Assembly (NCBI GenBank): GCA_934589525.1
Contig: CAKTOB010000034.1
Span: forward strand, 1-21,994
Length of the DNA stretch: 21,994 bases
Source: an uncultured Oscillospiraceae bacterium
GTDB taxonomy: Bacteria; Bacillota; Clostridia; Oscillospirales; Oscillospiraceae
Direction of reading: 5' to 3'
Below, one piece after another: positions 4,135-21,589 of this stretch. Every line of letters starts with the position of its first letter. The stretch's first letter is position 1. Made by a program: the position numbers and the translations under genes. Under the pieces are notes generated by a model. It was not told where the DNA came from. It ran no database searches and worked only from the letters and a program-made list of their open reading frames with translations.

Positions 4135-5856
4135 TTATTTATCCTCCTTCTTGGTAAAACGGGATTGCTTCTGATGGTAATAGCCCAGGTAGAAAGAGCC
4201 CTGCTCCGGCAGGCTCAGCCGGACGGGGAAGCTTTCACCCAGAATGCCCAGGATGCCGCTGATCTTCCGGTCCAGAGCCGTTCTGGCCCCGATGTCCAGC
4301 TTTCGCAGATGCTTTTGAGACAGATTGCTCAAAATCGGGAAAATGGTCGCCGGTGTGGCGGCAGCGGAATTAAAATACTTATCCTTGATGGTGGCGTTGA
4401 TGCCGGGGTTTGCCCGCTCCTGGGCCTCCTCGTATACGGCAAACAATCGGCCCAGGGTATAGGGAATATTGGTGCTGTTTTCGTTCAGGCTCACGGTCAG
4501 TACCTCCTCCGGACATAGAGCATTTGGATTTTTCAGATAATAGGCTTTCAAAATGGCGGCCCGGCCGGGGGTGATCTCCCGCTCCGCCCGGATGCGCAGC
4601 ATGGTGGCCTCCATAAGGGCGGCGGGGTAGGGGGTCCCCGTAAAAATGGCCCGGGCAGTAGCCCCCGCCAGAATGGGAGAGGGGGACTTGTCGGTGGTGT
4701 TGAGATTCACGATTTCCCGGAGCATGGCCCACAGGGGCATGACCGCAAAGCGGGCCCCCTCTATTTCCAGTCGGGAATTGTGGTCATTGACGTTTTTCAT
4801 CAGGGCCCCAAAGGAATTTCGGAAGAAAAACCGGACGGACAGCCGGGCCGCATTGGGGGAAAGGCCCAGAATATAAAAATTCCGATTTGGGTCCAGGGAA
4901 AGGGCCTCACAGGGCAGCCCCTGGGCAAGGTTTTTCATGGCATCCCGCAGGTCCCGGTCCGTCAGCCCCTCCGGCAGGGCATCTCCAAAGAGGCTTAGTC
5001 CGGCGAACAGATCATACTGGGGTTCCGCCCCCTCTGCCCAGAAGACCACCGTGGTATCCCCGATGCGGTGAACATTGGGCTTGTCGCTGAGCAGATGATT
5101 CAGGGCTGCCGTGTAGGCAAAGGCGGCGTATTTTCCAACAGGGGCGTTGAGACTTTGCTCTTTTCCGTAAGAGCAAAAGGCCGGGGCATTGAAGGAGACC
5201 ATGGCGGCCCCGCTGGACTGGGCACCGGCCACGCCCTTGATGGTGGGGTGGGTCGCCGCGGGTACATCCGCCTTTCCGGTGACCAGGCATTGCTGGGGCT
5301 CCCCCTGGATCTCGCCGTAGCGGGCATTCCAGGCTTCCCGGATTTGGGGATCTTCCTGGGCGTATTCTGCCCCCACCCGGAACATCAGGTTGCAGCCCTT
5401 TAGGAGCTCCTGATAGCACTCTGCCAGCGCCGGGTGGTGCTGCGCCTCCTCCGGCTGCCAGCTGTCGAAAAAGGCCAGGATCGCCTTGGCGGCGGGGGTG
5501 TTGATTCCGTCCAGCAGTTCATGGTGCAGCTGTTTGCTGGCTTCAAAGCATTTTTTCGCCCGTTCCGGTTTGTTCTTATCGTCAAAGCCCAGAAAATAGG
5601 TCGAATTGTCCCAAAGGAAGTTTGGCAATATCCCCACCGTTCGGGTAACTGCCGCAGGCAGCTCTACGGGTTTGGGGCGGAGCTGGAGCTTTTTTCCCAC
5701 CGGCGTTTCCACCAGCGTAGGCACCACATATTCCAAATGTCCTTCCGCATCCACACACAGGGCATAGCTGATTTTTGCGGGACTCCAGCCGGACCGGGAT
5801 AATTTGCCCTGGGAGACAAGATCCTCAAACAGCTGGGTCAAGGCTTGCAAAATCAT
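4135..5856 (-). CDS. cas8c: Cas8c (Csd1), large subunit of the I-C effector, PAM recognition
   Basis: The 573-residue protein matches the type I-C Csd1 family in length and landmarks: an N-terminal MILQALTQLFEDL start, the GWSPAKISYAL segment, ILPNFLWDNSTYFLGFD, CLVTGK, FNAPAFCSYGKEQS.NAPVG, and an ILGLSPNAARLSVRFFF core. Known role: reads the TTC-type PAM, opens the duplex and recruits Cas3. The I-C gene also yields a small Cas11c subunit by internal initiation in studied species; a similar internal start may exist near the 3' end but I cannot identify it surely. GTG at 5862 is also in frame, but ATG at 5856 has a 7-nt spacing from GGGGAGG and forms an ATGA overlap with cas5, so it is preferred. 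Confidence 0.96.
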   Translation of the reverse strand: MILQALTQLFEDLVSQGKLSRSGWSPAKISYALCVDAEGHLEYVVPTLVETPVGKKLQLRPKPVELPAAVTRTVGILPNFLWDNSTYFLGFDDKNKPERAKKCFEASKQLHHELLDGINTPAAKAILAFFDSWQPEEAQHHPALAECYQELLKGCNLMFRVGAEYAQEDPQIREAWNARYGEIQGEPQQCLVTGKADVPAATHPTIKGVAGAQSSGAAMVSFNAPAFCSYGKEQSLNAPVGKYAAFAYTAALNHLLSDKPNVHRIGDTTVVFWAEGAEPQYDLFAGLSLFGDALPEGLTDRDLRDAMKNLAQGLPCEALSLDPNRNFYILGLSPNAARLSVRFFFRNSFGALMKNVNDHNSRLEIEGARFAVMPLWAMLREIVNLNTTDKSPSPILAGATARAIFTGTPYPAALMEATMLRIRAEREITPGRAAILKAYYLKNPNALCPEEVLTVSLNENSTNIPYTLGRLFAVYEEAQERANPGINATIKDKYFNSAAATPATIFPILSNLSQKHLRKLDIGARTALDRKISGILGILGESFPVRLSLPEQGSFYLGYYHQKQSRFTKKEDK

Positions 5857-6512
5857 TTCCACACCTCCCCGCTGTTCATCGCCGGGACCTCCAGAACGCC
5901 GTCCCGGAGGACTGCCCGGAAGAAATGGGGGGTAATGTTCCCTGGGTCCGAGTAATCCAGGTCCAGCAGCATCCAGCCCAGGTCCCGCTGCCCCTTCAGC
6001 TCCTCGGGACAGGGAGGAAGCTGGGTGCAGGGCTTGAAATGGGCGGGAAACTCCCGCACCCCGAAGCAGGGAGGCCGGTAAAACTGGCCCCGTTCCACCC
6101 GGCGGCGCATCATTTCCTGAAATTTTCCGGGATTGTCTGAGGGTGCGGCCCGGTCTGTCATTTCAAAATGGGCATCGATGACATAGCGCACATCCCGCAG
6201 GACCATGGCGGCCCGCTGCTGAATGCTGTCCGAGGCGGAAAGATAAAGTTCCTCCCCGGTTTCCATGGCGGAGCGGGCATTTCTGGCGCTGAGCACGTCC
6301 TTAACCTCGTTGCGGCGGATGTTTGTGAAGCGAATGGGGGCGCATACATGAATGCGGTCGATCCGCCACACCAGTCCCGGGTGCCAGAAAATACTTTCCA
6401 GCAGCCCCCGAGCCGCCGAAGGGGTCATCACGTCATAACTGACCCGTTCCGTTTTTAATTCCGGCCTGGAGAAGCAGGCAAAATCCCCCCAGACCTCAAC
6501 AGAAATCGACAT
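5853..6512 (-). CDS. cas5: Cas5 (Cas5c/d), crRNA-processing endoribonuclease and 5'-handle cap
   Basis: This 219-residue protein is the first gene of the effector-adaptation operon. It starts MSISVEVWGDFACFSRPELKTERVSYD and has the TPSAARGLLESIFWHPG segment and the ALRDV-like block VLRDVRYVIDAHFEM (about residues 120-135) of I-C Cas5. Known role: type I-C lacks Cas6, and Cas5 cuts the pre-crRNA at the base of the repeat hairpin, leaving an 11-nt 5' handle that it then holds. The frame extends 33 codons upstream, but the ATG at 6512 has AAAGGAG 8 nt before it and matches the usual family start, and the extension would run into the promoter. A leader of about 75 nt lies between the predicted transcription start and this ATG. 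Confidence 0.96.
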   Translation of the reverse strand: MSISVEVWGDFACFSRPELKTERVSYDVMTPSAARGLLESIFWHPGLVWRIDRIHVCAPIRFTNIRRNEVKDVLSARNARSAMETGEELYLSASDSIQQRAAMVLRDVRYVIDAHFEMTDRAAPSDNPGKFQEMMRRRVERGQFYRPPCFGVREFPAHFKPCTQLPPCPEELKGQRDLGWMLLDLDYSDPGNITPHFFRAVLRDGVLEVPAMNSGEVWK

Positions 6513-6594
6513 TGGGTGTCTCCTTTCTAATTTTTTTACGGAAGAAAACATTGCTGTTTGCAAAATACAGCAGGCTTTTTCTCTGTATGCCCCA

Positions 6595-6623
6595 ATCATA
6601 GCACGTCTCATTTACATTGTCAA
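6595..6623 (-). promoter_or_regulatory. Promoter of the cas5-8c-7-4-1-2 operon
   Basis: On the minus strand a perfect TTGACA (6618-6623) is separated by exactly 17 bp from TATGAT (6595-6600), and TG lies one base before the -10, giving an extended -10 element. Predicted transcription starts near 6588. This is close to sigma-A consensus, so the operon should be strongly expressed unless repressed. A TTC PAM and a match to the guide RNA lie immediately upstream of the -35 box. Confidence 0.9.
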
Positions 6624-6624
6624 G

Positions 6625-6644
6625 TTCAATAAATAAAAAAGTAA
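6625..6644 (+). promoter_or_regulatory. Guide-RNA target site: TTC PAM plus 17-nt partial protospacer beside the cas -35 box
   Basis: TTC (6625-6627) is the canonical I-C PAM. The next 17 bases (6628-6644) match the first 17 bases of the spacer-like region at 6727-6743 in 16 places: 11 contiguous from the PAM, a mismatch at position 12, then 5 more. Position 18 mismatches and similarity then ends. The PAM starts one base from the -35 hexamer at 6618-6623, so an effector bound here would cover that box. The match and distances are read directly; the binding is inferred. Confidence 0.85.
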
Positions 6645-6666
6645 ACTTATTGTATGGTGATTTTAT

Positions 6667-6695
6667 TTGACAAAACAAGGTGGGTATGGCATACT
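6667..6695 (+). promoter_or_regulatory. Promoter of the crRNA-like guide RNA
   Basis: A perfect TTGACA (6667-6672) is followed after 17 bp by CATACT (6690-6695). TG at 6687-6688 makes an extended -10 element that would compensate for the C at the first -10 position. The predicted start is about 6702, exactly where the degenerate repeat begins. It points away from the cas operon promoter; 43 bp separate the two -35 boxes and hold the target site. Confidence 0.8.
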
Positions 6696-6701
6696 ATGAC
6701 C

Positions 6702-6784
6702 GTCGGGGAAACCCGTGGATTGAAATAATAAATAAAACAGTAATGCGGTAAAAGGGGCAGGCAGATCATGCGCTGCCCCTTTTT
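6702..6784 (+). ncRNA. creR: CreR-type crRNA-like RNA: degenerate CRISPR repeat, spacer-like guide, terminator
   Basis: The predicted RNA of about 83 nt starts with a degenerate repeat (6702-6726). This keeps a leading GTC, has a 4-bp hairpin CGGG-GAAA-CCCG (6704-6715) in place of the array's 7-bp stem, and ends in GTGGATTGAAAT, identical over 12 nt to the array repeat and including the full 11-nt I-C handle. The guide begins at 6727 with AATAAATAAAACAGTAA and runs into a terminator hairpin at 6750-6783. The guide's first 17 nt match the site beside the cas promoter. Known family: Cas-regulating (CreR) RNAs use the effector to repress cas promoters through partial matches. The symbol is assigned by analogy. 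Alternatives are a CRISPR relic or a CreA-type antitoxin, but the matching target at the cas promoter and the lack of a nearby toxin gene favour CreR. Confidence 0.85.
6750..6784. terminator. Bidirectional intrinsic terminator shared by the guide RNA and cas3
   Basis: An 11-bp stem AAAAGGGGCAG (6750-6760) / CTGCCCCTTTT (6773-6783) with a 12-nt loop ends in a T-run on both strands. On the plus strand it ends the guide RNA; on the minus strand it lies 3 bp after the cas3 stop and ends cas3 transcription before the cas5 operon promoter. Confidence 0.88.
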
Positions 6785-6787
6785 CCG

Positions 6788-19312: not shown

Positions 19313-19383
19313 CAATTGACAATTGACAATGGACAATTGACAATTTTTCTAAGTTGACAGTTGACAGTTGACAGTTGACAGTT
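19313..19383. repeat. Tandem heptamer repeats, TTGACAA then TTGACAG
   Basis: Two runs of 7-bp units follow directly after the GH1 stop: TTGACAA/TGGACAA copies at 19313-19346 and TTGACAG copies at 19351-19383. The same units recur at 21389-21453 and, inverted, at 21888-21951. Each unit resembles a -35 hexamer, but no -10 box follows. Confidence 0.9.
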
Positions 19384-19437
19384 CGTGGGGACGGACGTGC
19401 CCGTTTTGAAAATACATTGGTTAAAAACTACACCAAT

Positions 19438-19473
19438 CAGCGAAACCGTAGGGAACGGCCTATGTGCCGTTCC
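19438..19473. repeat. Interspersed hairpin repeat, copy 1
   Basis: This 36-bp segment is identical to 21554-21589. Its second half is a perfect inverted repeat, GGAACGGC (19452-19459) and GCCGTTCC (19466-19473) around CTATGT, and it is preceded by the family word GTAGG. A third copy of the palindrome lies inverted at 21816-21837. Confidence 0.9.
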
Positions 19474-19478
19474 GGGGA

Positions 19479-19652
19479 CGTTACGATTATAACCCGTGTG
19501 GATGAACGGTACCACGCCTGTAGGGGCGGCAATCTGCCGCCCGCCACGTTGCATATATAACCTGTGCGGTTGAATGGAATTACGCAATGTAGCGGCGATG
19601 ATCCATCGCCATGCAACGTAACGAATATAACCCGTGCGGATGAACGGTACCA
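19479..19652. repeat. Tandem array of about 70-bp units with variable hairpins
   Basis: Three diverged copies of a unit built on ATATAACCCGTGCGGATGAA start near 19479, 19548 and 19618. Between them lie two hairpins with different arms but the same layout: GTAGG, then GGGCGGC/GCCGCCC (19521-19543), and GTAG, then GGCGATG/CATCGCC (19590-19610). A further inverted copy of the unit lies at about 21775-21812. The region has no gene and resembles BIME/REP-type arrays. Confidence 0.8.
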
Positions 19653-19660
19653 CCCCCCGA

Positions 19661-20041: not shown

Positions 20042-20116
20042 TGGTGACCCGTACGGGAATCGAACCCATGTTACCGCCGTGAAAGGGCGGTGTCTTAACC
20101 GCTTGACCAACGGGCC
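20042..20116 (-). tRNA. trnE: tRNA-Glu (TTC)
   Basis: Minus-strand 75-nt cloverleaf: acceptor GGCCCGT with ACGGGTC, anticodon stem CCGCC/GGCGG around CTTTCAC (anticodon TTC), T-arm GGGTTCGAATCCC, discriminator A and an encoded CCA. It abuts tRNA-Met without a gap. Confidence 0.96.
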
Positions 20117-20192
20117 TGGTAGCGGCAATCTGATTCGAACAGATGACATACCGGGTATGAACCGGCTACTCTACCAACTGAGTTATGCCGCC
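20117..20192 (-). tRNA. trnM: tRNA-Met (CAT), elongator type
   Basis: Minus-strand 76-nt cloverleaf: acceptor GGCGGCA with TGCCGCT, anticodon stem GCCGG/CCGGT around TTCATAC (anticodon CAT), T-arm CTGTTCGAATCAG and an encoded CCA. The anticodon stem lacks the three consecutive G-C pairs of initiator tRNA. An Ile2 tRNA, with CAT modified to read ATA, cannot be ruled out by sequence alone. Confidence 0.93.
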
Positions 20193-21382: not shown

Positions 21383-21388
21383 GGGGGA

Positions 21389-21453
21389 AGTGGACAGTTG
21401 ACAGTGGACAGTTCTGTCCCAATTGACAATGGACAATGGACAATTGACAATTT
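21389..21453. repeat. Tandem heptamer repeats, left end of the second island
   Basis: TGGACAG/TTGACAG units (21389-21413) and TTGACAA/TGGACAA units (21420-21453) repeat the pattern at 19313-19383 in the opposite block order. They begin six bases after the TRIC stop codon. Confidence 0.88.
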
Positions 21454-21553
21454 TTCGGGGGACGGATGTTTTACCTTTGCGTTCGTTGTTCCCACAATAC
21501 GGAACACCCTACCGCCCGTCCTCAGAATACCCCGGTTGAAAACGTCCACCTAC

Positions 21554-21589
21554 CAGCGAAACCGTAGGGAACGGCCTATGTGCCGTTCC
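21554..21589. repeat. Interspersed hairpin repeat, copy 2
   Basis: Identical over 36 bp to 19438-19473, with the palindrome GGAACGGC (21568-21575) / GCCGTTCC (21582-21589). The stretch from 21454 to 21553 contains no gene and only weak similarity to 19384-19437. Confidence 0.9.

What the first reader, a model, noticed from the sequence alone, without database searches (positions are those of the whole stretch)
6702..6784. Self-contained crRNA-like guide RNA gene between cas3 and cas5
The plus strand carries, in under 120 bp, a TTGACA/extended -10 promoter, a degenerate CRISPR repeat, a guide-like stretch and an intrinsic terminator. The degenerate repeat keeps the exact 12-nt 3' end of the array repeat, including the full I-C handle, while its hairpin has been rebuilt as CGGG-GAAA-CCCG. 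The transcription start falls at the repeat. A relic of an old array would not be expected to keep a promoter, processing hairpin, handle and terminator in register. This is a strong candidate for a CreR-type Cas-regulating RNA of a I-C system in a gut Clostridia lineage.
Basis: partly seen in the sequence, partly recalled or inferred. Interest (0 to 1): 0.95.

Follow-up and report, generated by a model that had tools for sequence, protein, structure and literature searches.

The report
Type I-C CRISPR self-silencing guide RNA
Between two genes of a bacterial CRISPR immune system lies a tiny stretch whose guide sequence matches DNA beside the predicted switch of the neighbouring immune genes, and the same pairing recurs with different letters in dozens of related systems, so its predicted RNA likely acts as a built-in brake that would keep those genes in check.

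Summary
In detail: window 6667-6784 (+) carries a promoter-like pair, a degenerate I-C repeat with the exact 12-nt 3' end of the array repeat, a guide and an intrinsic terminator. The guide (6727-6743) has a partner 99 bp upstream: TTC (6625-6627) and a protospacer (6628-6644) matching 16 of 17 positions, the mismatch at position 12, one base from the -35 of the predicted cas5 promoter. The same design was found in 44 of 198 distinct cas5-upstream regions (39 strict, 5 relaxed): 38 of 39 guides hit their own region, against 3 of 1482 swapped pairs. Matching falls to background at positions 6, 12 and 18 and stops after 17: the six-base rhythm of Cascade, and below the >18 bp reported for interference in E. 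coli I-E. Best reading: a CreR-type autorepressor of a I-C system, with one repeat and its own terminator. Expression and repression are untested. CreR is a known kind (one review names I-B, I-E, V-A; another says type I and V-A); the two key papers were not held, so priority for I-C is open. In passing: a rarer form that appears embedded in the cas5 mRNA leader.

The parts
6667..6695 (+). creR promoter-like pair: TTGACA 6667-6672, 17 nt, CATACT 6690-6695, TG extension
   Evidence: 10 of 12 consensus positions
6702..6784 (+). predicted creR transcript (start and end inferred)
   Evidence: spacing from the promoter-like pair; terminator; fold
6704..6715 (+). degenerate repeat hairpin CGGG-GAAA-CCCG
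6716..6726 (+). crRNA 5' handle TGGATTGAAAT, identical to the array repeat end
   Evidence: the 11-nt handle length is recalled
6727..6743 (+). guide AATAAATAAAACAGTAA (17 nt that can pair)
6750..6784 (+). intrinsic terminator: 11-bp stem and T run
6625..6627 (+). PAM TTC of the regulatory target
6628..6644 (+). protospacer AATAAATAAAAAAGTAA: 16 of 17 match, mismatch at position 12
   Evidence: of four sites in the window with seed 9/10 or better (one is the guide itself) the only one with a TTC
6595..6623 (-). cas5 promoter-like pair TTGACA-17-TATGAT with TG extension; one base lies between its -35 and the PAM
   Evidence: (11 of 12)
5853..6512 (-). cas5c, first gene after the targeted promoter
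   Evidence: TIGR01876
4135..5862 (-). cas8c/csd1
   Evidence: TIGR01863
3247..4134 (-). cas7/csd2
   Evidence: TIGR02589
2588..3250 (-). cas4
   Evidence: TIGR00372
1560..2576 (-). cas1c
   Evidence: TIGR03640
1266..1556 (-). cas2
   Evidence: TIGR01573
6788..8926 (-). cas3 (start approximate)
   Evidence: TIGR01587, TIGR01596
1..1088 (-). CRISPR array, 16 repeats seen, reaches the window edge

Best explanation
The element is predicted to be transcribed into a crRNA-like guide that would load into the I-C Cascade and bind a TTC-flanked match one base from the -35 of the predicted cas5 promoter, and so likely represses cas5-cas8c-cas7; the guide, the TTC and the match themselves are in the sequence. 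Shown in sequence: promoter-like pair, repeat hairpin with the array's handle, guide, terminator, PAM and protospacer at the predicted cas5 promoter; recurrence in relatives with co-changing guide and target. Inferred: transcription; cutting by Cas5c at the base of the hairpin; loading; covering of the -35 by bound Cascade; no Cas3 attack on the own chromosome, because pairing ends at 17 nt. The loop is closed: little free Cascade leaves the promoter on; spare Cascade not occupied by array crRNAs takes creR and turns it off. The single repeat plus own terminator makes it a compact unit read against the cas genes.
For: (1) 10/10 seed (positions 1-5, 7-11) plus 5/5 at 13-17 with TTC in the window; 4 of 200000 shuffled guides do as well. 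(2) In 198 distinct cas5-upstream regions 582 handle occurrences gave 53 seed hits; 20 draws of permuted handles (mean 368 occurrences; equal counts suggest that some five draws repeat a handle) gave 1-12 hits, mean 4.0. Antisense, same-strand, TTC/TTT hits: 35 against 0 in each of the 20 draws. PAM was not demanded in that scan: of its 39 antisense same-strand hits 29 had TTC and 6 TTT. (3) 38 distinct seeds among the 39 accepted pairs; own region hit by 38 of 39, other regions in 3 of 1482 swaps, two of those being one related pair with equal seeds. (4) Matches by position over the 39 pairs: 6: 11, 12: 7, 13-17: 34, 32, 33, 29, 22, 18: 9, beyond that 5-12, near the quarter expected; positions 1-5 and 7-11 are 39 of 39 by the selection rule. 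Review PMC11127173 (passages) gives flipping of every sixth guide base as a feature of Class 1 complexes. (5) In E. coli I-E 5 bp suffice for binding and >18 bp are needed for interference (PMC5904413 abstract). (6) Targets sit 19-174 nt upstream of the cas5 start; in loci with a strong promoter call they lie just above the -35 or just below the -10. (7) Among evaluable regions with cas5 identity of 50% or more, all 40 with creR have a cas3-cas5 gap of 120 nt or more; of 48 without, 36 have a shorter gap.
Against: No transcript, binding or repression data. 12 of 52 long-gap relatives (cas5 identity 50% or more) gave no match; of these L083 and L149 keep a handle (11 and 10 of 12 letters), L094 a decayed one (9 of 12) and L100 one seen by eye, without a target found. 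The nearest cas5 relative, L001, lacks the whole spacer region. creR handles depart from the host array by a letter or more in L005, L091, L093, L095, L098, L104, L117, L165, L167, L198. My promoter-overlap rule was met in 19 of 39 pairs only; in others the target lies below the predicted -10, or the promoter call is weak or elsewhere (L092, L093, L102, L104, L136, L164). Downstream stem of 6 bp or more in 34 of 39, with a T tail in 21 (the scorer under-called the window's own terminator). A section heading of PMC5904413 says that off-target Cascade binding does not affect local gene expression (outline). The genome is not held, so targets outside these 22 kb could not be looked for.
Confidence: 0.86

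Rival explanations
1. A plain antisense RNA: the transcript pairs with the cas3-cas5 read-through mRNA and acts on RNA, without Cascade.
For: 36 of the 39 accepted pairs are same-strand, so the guide could pair with a cas read-through mRNA.
Against: TTC/TTT before 35 of the 39 antisense same-strand hits though not demanded; gaps at every sixth base; in L092, L097, L140 (strict) and L087, L090 (relaxed) the guide matches the other strand; in the window the target lies upstream of the predicted cas5 start site.
Confidence: 0.03
2. A Racr-like decoy: a solitary repeat RNA that occupies Cas5c/Cas7 and blocks the effector, the guide being incidental.
For: A solitary I-C repeat RNA that inhibits I-C is known from a prophage (RacrIC1, PMC10651486 passages).
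Against: A decoy does not explain the guide-target co-change; the element lies inside the cas locus.
Confidence: 0.04
3. Cascade placed by creR activates or only fine-tunes cas5 rather than repressing it.
For: In the window the protospacer lies upstream of the -35, a place where a bound protein can also help; off-target Cascade sites in E. coli did not affect expression (section heading).
Against: One base lies between PAM and -35, which a bound Cascade would be expected to cover; in other loci the target lies below the predicted -10, where a block is expected.
Confidence: 0.06
4. A relic of an old array with a spacer that happens to match.
For: The repeat is degenerate.
Against: Recurs with new guides that keep pairing; the match stops at 17 nt instead of a whole spacer; promoter-like pair and terminator in register.
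Confidence: 0.01

Closest known systems
CreR, cas-regulating RNA (Liu et al. 2023; paper not held, read only through passages of PMC12737573, PMC13131331 and PMC12948488)
   Same: crRNA-like RNA for the cas genes' own promoter, partial match, predicted autorepression
   Different: PMC13131331 names I-B, I-E and V-A, PMC12737573 says type I and V-A; here I-C, with Cas5c in place of Cas6, one repeat only, own terminator, match limited to 17 nt, read against the operon
CreA of CreTA (PMC9458426: abstract, introduction, discussion)
   Same: One or two degenerate repeats, a spacer-like part partly matching a promoter, TTC PAM, Cascade as repressor without Cas3
   Different: Target is the promoter before cas5; no toxin gene seen, though short ORFs and toxin RNAs were not screened
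Standalone repeats / crRNA-like RNAs of Shmakov et al. 2023 (title seen in reference lists; paper not held, content recalled)
   Same: As recalled: standalone repeats in type I loci with spacers partly matching cas promoters
   Different: Whether I-C single-repeat units are listed there could not be checked
Racr, RNA anti-CRISPRs (PMC10651486 passages)
   Same: Solitary repeat; a I-C example exists
   Different: Encoded in viral genomes, inhibitors of the effector
Natural single-guide RNA of Cas9 that autoregulates CRISPR-Cas (Workman et al. 2021, title seen; rest recalled)
   Same: A natural short guide turns the effector on its own promoter
   Different: Class 2, Cas9

Membership tests
CreR | Repeat-like element outside the array, in the cas locus | tested here: met
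CreR | Spacer-like part with limited complementarity and PAM to a cas promoter | tested here: met
   (the promoter is a consensus match)
CreR | Complementarity kept in relatives by co-change of guide and target | tested here: met
CreR | Transcribed and processed into a small RNA | not testable with these tools
   promoter-like pair and terminator only
CreR | Effector-dependent repression of cas genes, eased by crRNAs or anti-CRISPRs | not testable with these tools
   none
CreTA (CreA) | Target is the promoter of a linked toxin gene or toxin RNA | tested here: inconclusive
   the targeted promoter leads directly to cas5 and no separate ORF of 80 aa or more lies between; shorter ORFs and toxin RNAs were not screened
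Racr | Solitary repeat in a viral genome, not associated with cas genes | tested here: not met
   lies inside a complete I-C cas locus; prophage context beyond the 22 kb not searched
Array relic | No selection on guide and handle | tested here: not met

The most novel reading that the evidence does not exclude
Type I-C systems of Clostridia, of the Selenomonas order and of the Slackia order share a one-repeat, terminator-ended autorepressor guide of three five-base blocks whose target is rewritten together with it again and again; and in an offshoot of I-C the guide has moved into the cas5 mRNA leader, so that each cas message carries, and Cas5c would cut out, the very guide that shuts its promoter.
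Probability: 0.45. Interest if true: 0.85.

Novelty: new variant of a known kind. Interest (0 to 1): 0.74.

Why it matters
[quoted passage not shown] If right, a compact natural guide with a 17-nt code, readable from sequence, lets one predict the regulation of a I-C system and design a clean test. The 39 guide-target pairs are also a natural experiment on which pairs a I-C Cascade needs to bind without cutting: blocks 1-5, 7-11 and 13-17, then nothing.

Tried and rejected
Own-genome search for other targets: genome not held. Phage carriers of the same handle plus seed: one exact hit in one scan of viral contigs (L234); by eye no repeat hairpin stands before it, taken as chance. Rfam at gathering scores finds only two tRNAs in the window. 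Seed hits dropped before the 39: L123 (TGC), L128 (GGA, inside cas5), a second L204 site (ACC), L171, L185 (two), L133, and the 7 sense-strand hits, four of which belong to the leader form. L124 (CTT) was kept and fails the TTC/TTT rule of the swap control. L212 was dropped (no cas5 start mapped). The five relaxed cases were picked by eye as antisense, TTC and 13 or more of 15 positions; left out were L072 (TTT, about 370 nt upstream), L029 (sense strand) and L166 (12 of 15). Sampling limits: one search kept 80 of 124 relatives; 50 of 52 matching genomes were fetched, and 30 of 34. Does the creR handle copy the host array? Only partly: regions for 20 of the 39 loci were fetched and 19 gave an array (one, L102, too short to read the handle). 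Of 9 hosts whose array 12-mer departs from GTGGATTGAAAT, seven show the departing letter in creR (L111, L119, L124, L136, L140, L143, L145), two do not (L104, L167); and in at least L091, L093, L095, L098, L117, L165, L198 (and L005) creR departs where the array does not. Origin on the cas5 tree: 42 of 97 rows carry creR, 20 changes, all inside one supported set of 77 rows, so one origin with many losses is possible but not shown (the bootstrap had not settled). More leader-type loci: one new (L237) in 87 genomes, none in 48, 8 and 381.

Full report
The finding. The window holds a type I-C CRISPR-Cas locus on the minus strand: cas3, cas5c, cas8c, cas7, cas4, cas1c, cas2 and an array with 16 repeats seen. 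Between cas3 and cas5 lies a gap of 275 bp (6513-6787). On its plus strand stand a TTGACA-17-CATACT promoter-like pair with a TG extension, the hairpin CGGG-GAAA-CCCG, the 12 bases GTGGATTGAAAT that end the array repeat, an unpaired stretch and an intrinsic terminator.

The missing half. Read as a crRNA, the guide starts at 6727: AATAAATAAAACAGTAA. On the same strand, 6625-6644, stands TTC-AATAAATAAAAAAGTAA. Sixteen of 17 positions match; the mismatch is position 12. In the 22 kb four sites reach 9 of the 10 seed positions: this one (10, TTC), the guide itself (10, AAT) and two others (9, AAG and AGT). One base lies between the PAM and the TTGACA of the predicted cas5 promoter (TTGACA-17-TATGAT, 11 of 12, TG extension). 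That TTC is the I-C PAM is recalled; the enrichment below shows it independently.

Is it chance? For this window, shuffled guides reach the same seed with TTC/TTT in 359 of 200000 trials, and 5/5 at positions 13-17 as well in 4 of 200000. Relatives decide it. I collected 214 loci with cas5: the window, 80 from the species-genome collection (80 of 124 kept), 5 repeats of those, 49 from the order of L002, 29 from the order of Slackia, 30 from the order of a Lachnospiraceae bin, 1 from Enterococcus' order, 19 from the order of a Selenomonas bin. Of these 213 had a mappable cas5 start; 198 upstream regions were distinct in their last 150 nt. Handles within one mismatch of ATTGAAAT or GTTGAAAT occurred 582 times and gave 53 guide-target pairs with all ten seed positions matched. 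Twenty draws of permuted handles (223-644 occurrences, mean 368; equal counts suggest that about five draws repeat a handle) gave 1 to 12 pairs, mean 4.0. Antisense, same-strand, TTC/TTT pairs: 35 against 0 in each of the 20 draws. PAM had not been demanded: of the 39 antisense same-strand hits 29 had TTC and 6 TTT. I accepted 39 pairs: those 35, three with TTC on the other strand (L092, L097, L140) and L124 with CTT. A looser search added five picked by eye: L087, L090, L110, L113, L153. Together 44 of 198 regions.

Co-change. The 39 guides hold 38 different seeds. A guide hits its own region with TTC/TTT in 38 of 39 cases and another locus' region in 3 of 1482. Near-identical loci show it best: L203 and L204, whose cas5 are almost the same, differ by one seed base, changed in guide and target alike; L106 and L107, again with nearly the same cas5, carry different guides, each fitting its own target.

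A Cascade signature. Over the 39 pairs, matches at positions 6, 12 and 18 are 11, 7 and 9 of 39 (about a quarter is expected), while 13-17 match in 34, 32, 33, 29 and 22 of 39; positions 19-30 match in 5 to 12 of 39. Positions 1-5 and 7-11 were the selection rule and prove nothing here. Flipping of every sixth guide base is described for Class 1 effectors (PMC11127173, passages). The end at 17 fits E. coli I-E work in which 5 bp suffice for Cascade to bind and more than 18 bp are needed for interference (PMC5904413, abstract). That this carries over to I-C is inference. Against easy optimism, a section heading of the same paper says that off-target Cascade binding does not affect local gene expression.

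Where it docks. In loci with a strong promoter call the target lies either just upstream of the -35 (window, L082, L086, L091, L095, L084, L011: PAM 1 to 9 nt from it) or just below the -10 (for example L203, L165, L208, L119, L138). In 14 of the 36 same-strand pairs the PAM is 19 to 28 nt from the cas5 start. My formal overlap rule (target or PAM with 12 nt margin touching -35 to -10) was met in 19 of 39; the rest lie below the -10 or have a weak or distant promoter call. Both main places fit a block of cas5-cas8c-cas7 transcription.

Architecture and spread. A second repeat-like 12-mer within 150 nt was seen in 1 of 39 (9 of 12 letters, L141); a stem of 6 bp or more follows the guide in 34 of 39, with 4 or more T of 8 behind it in 21. 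Among evaluable regions with cas5 identity of at least 50%, 40 carry creR and all have a cas3-cas5 gap of at least 120 nt; of 48 without, 36 have a shorter gap and 12 do not. L001, the nearest relative, and L202, nearly identical in cas5 to L203/L204, have lost the gap. On the cas5 tree creR is scattered through one supported set of 77 of 97 rows (42 carriers, 20 changes) and absent from the other 20. Carriers with names include Ruminococcus and Oscillospiraceae bins, a Lachnospiraceae bin and Slackia faecicanis DSM 17537.

How it works. Shown: anatomy, target, co-change, rhythm. Inferred: the RNA is made; Cas5c, which in I-C processes the crRNA and holds the 5' handle (PMC7684278, passages), cuts and keeps it; the complex sits on the cas5 promoter; transcription falls; Cas3 is not called because pairing stops at 17. 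Array crRNAs would compete for the same proteins, so the loop would sense free Cascade, as a review describes for CreR (PMC12737573, passages). The degenerate repeat fits work on creA, where degeneration protects from recombination and ties the RNA to its own system (PMC9458426, abstract, introduction and discussion).

What is known. CreR is named for I-B, I-E and V-A in PMC13131331 (passages) and for 'Type I and Type V-A' in PMC12737573 (passages). I saw no I-C CreR in the listings of my searches or in the passages read; the two papers most likely to have one, Liu et al. 2023 and Shmakov et al. 2023, were not held. So the element meets the CreR features that could be tested here; priority for I-C is open.

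Beside the finding. In a divergent I-C group (cas5 34-39% identical to the window's), seven loci (L060, L129, L130, L131, L132, L191, L192) carry a repeat hairpin and handle in the sense direction shortly before cas5; the guide matches the opposite strand further up, near the promoter, with GTC or GTT before it in 7 of 7 and mismatches at 6 and 12 in most. Four of seven have the full seed (L060, L130, L132, L191); the others 8 or 9 of 10. In the 7 x 7 swap table the own score (10-14 of 15) beats every other locus in six rows; for L191 another locus ties at 12, without a GTC/GTT. Locus L237, fetched afterwards, was missed by the handle rule (its handle reads TTTGAAAT), was seen by eye and then scored 10/10 plus 4/5 with GTC; L238, fetched with it but outside the group, gave nothing. 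I saw no T run behind the guides (by eye), so the guide would be part of the cas mRNA itself. Eight loci, found while looking, deserve a test of their own.

Noticed in passing
L060, L129, L130, L131, L132, L191, L192, L237 (cas5 leaders): Leader-embedded form: sense-strand repeat hairpin and handle between the predicted cas5 promoter and cas5, guide matching the opposite strand near the promoter with GTC/GTT before it; no T run seen, so the guide would be cut out of the cas mRNA.
   Followed up: partly
L083, L094, L100, L149: Long-gap loci with a handle or decayed handle but no target found; possible decaying creR or targets elsewhere.
   Followed up: partly
window 6556-6575: Inverted repeat in the cas5 leader that scores as terminator-like on the plus strand; might matter for cas5 leader folding.
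   Followed up: no
window 19313-19390 and 21388-21456: Runs of a degenerate TTGACAG/TTGACAA-type 7-mer at two places about 2 kb apart.
   Followed up: no
window 19423-19473 and 21539-21589; 19478-19656: A 51-nt repeat at 90% identity 2116 bp apart, and three copies of a 41-nt repeat, not far from two tRNA genes (20045-20192).
   Followed up: no
L005, L095, L098, L117, L165: creR handle reads GTTGAAAT while the host array reads ATTGAAAT: the same one-letter shift in several loci.
   Followed up: no
L072, about 370 nt upstream of cas5: A TTT-flanked opposite-strand match that also agrees at positions 6 and 12 behind a poor handle; more like a local repeat than a creR.
   Followed up: no
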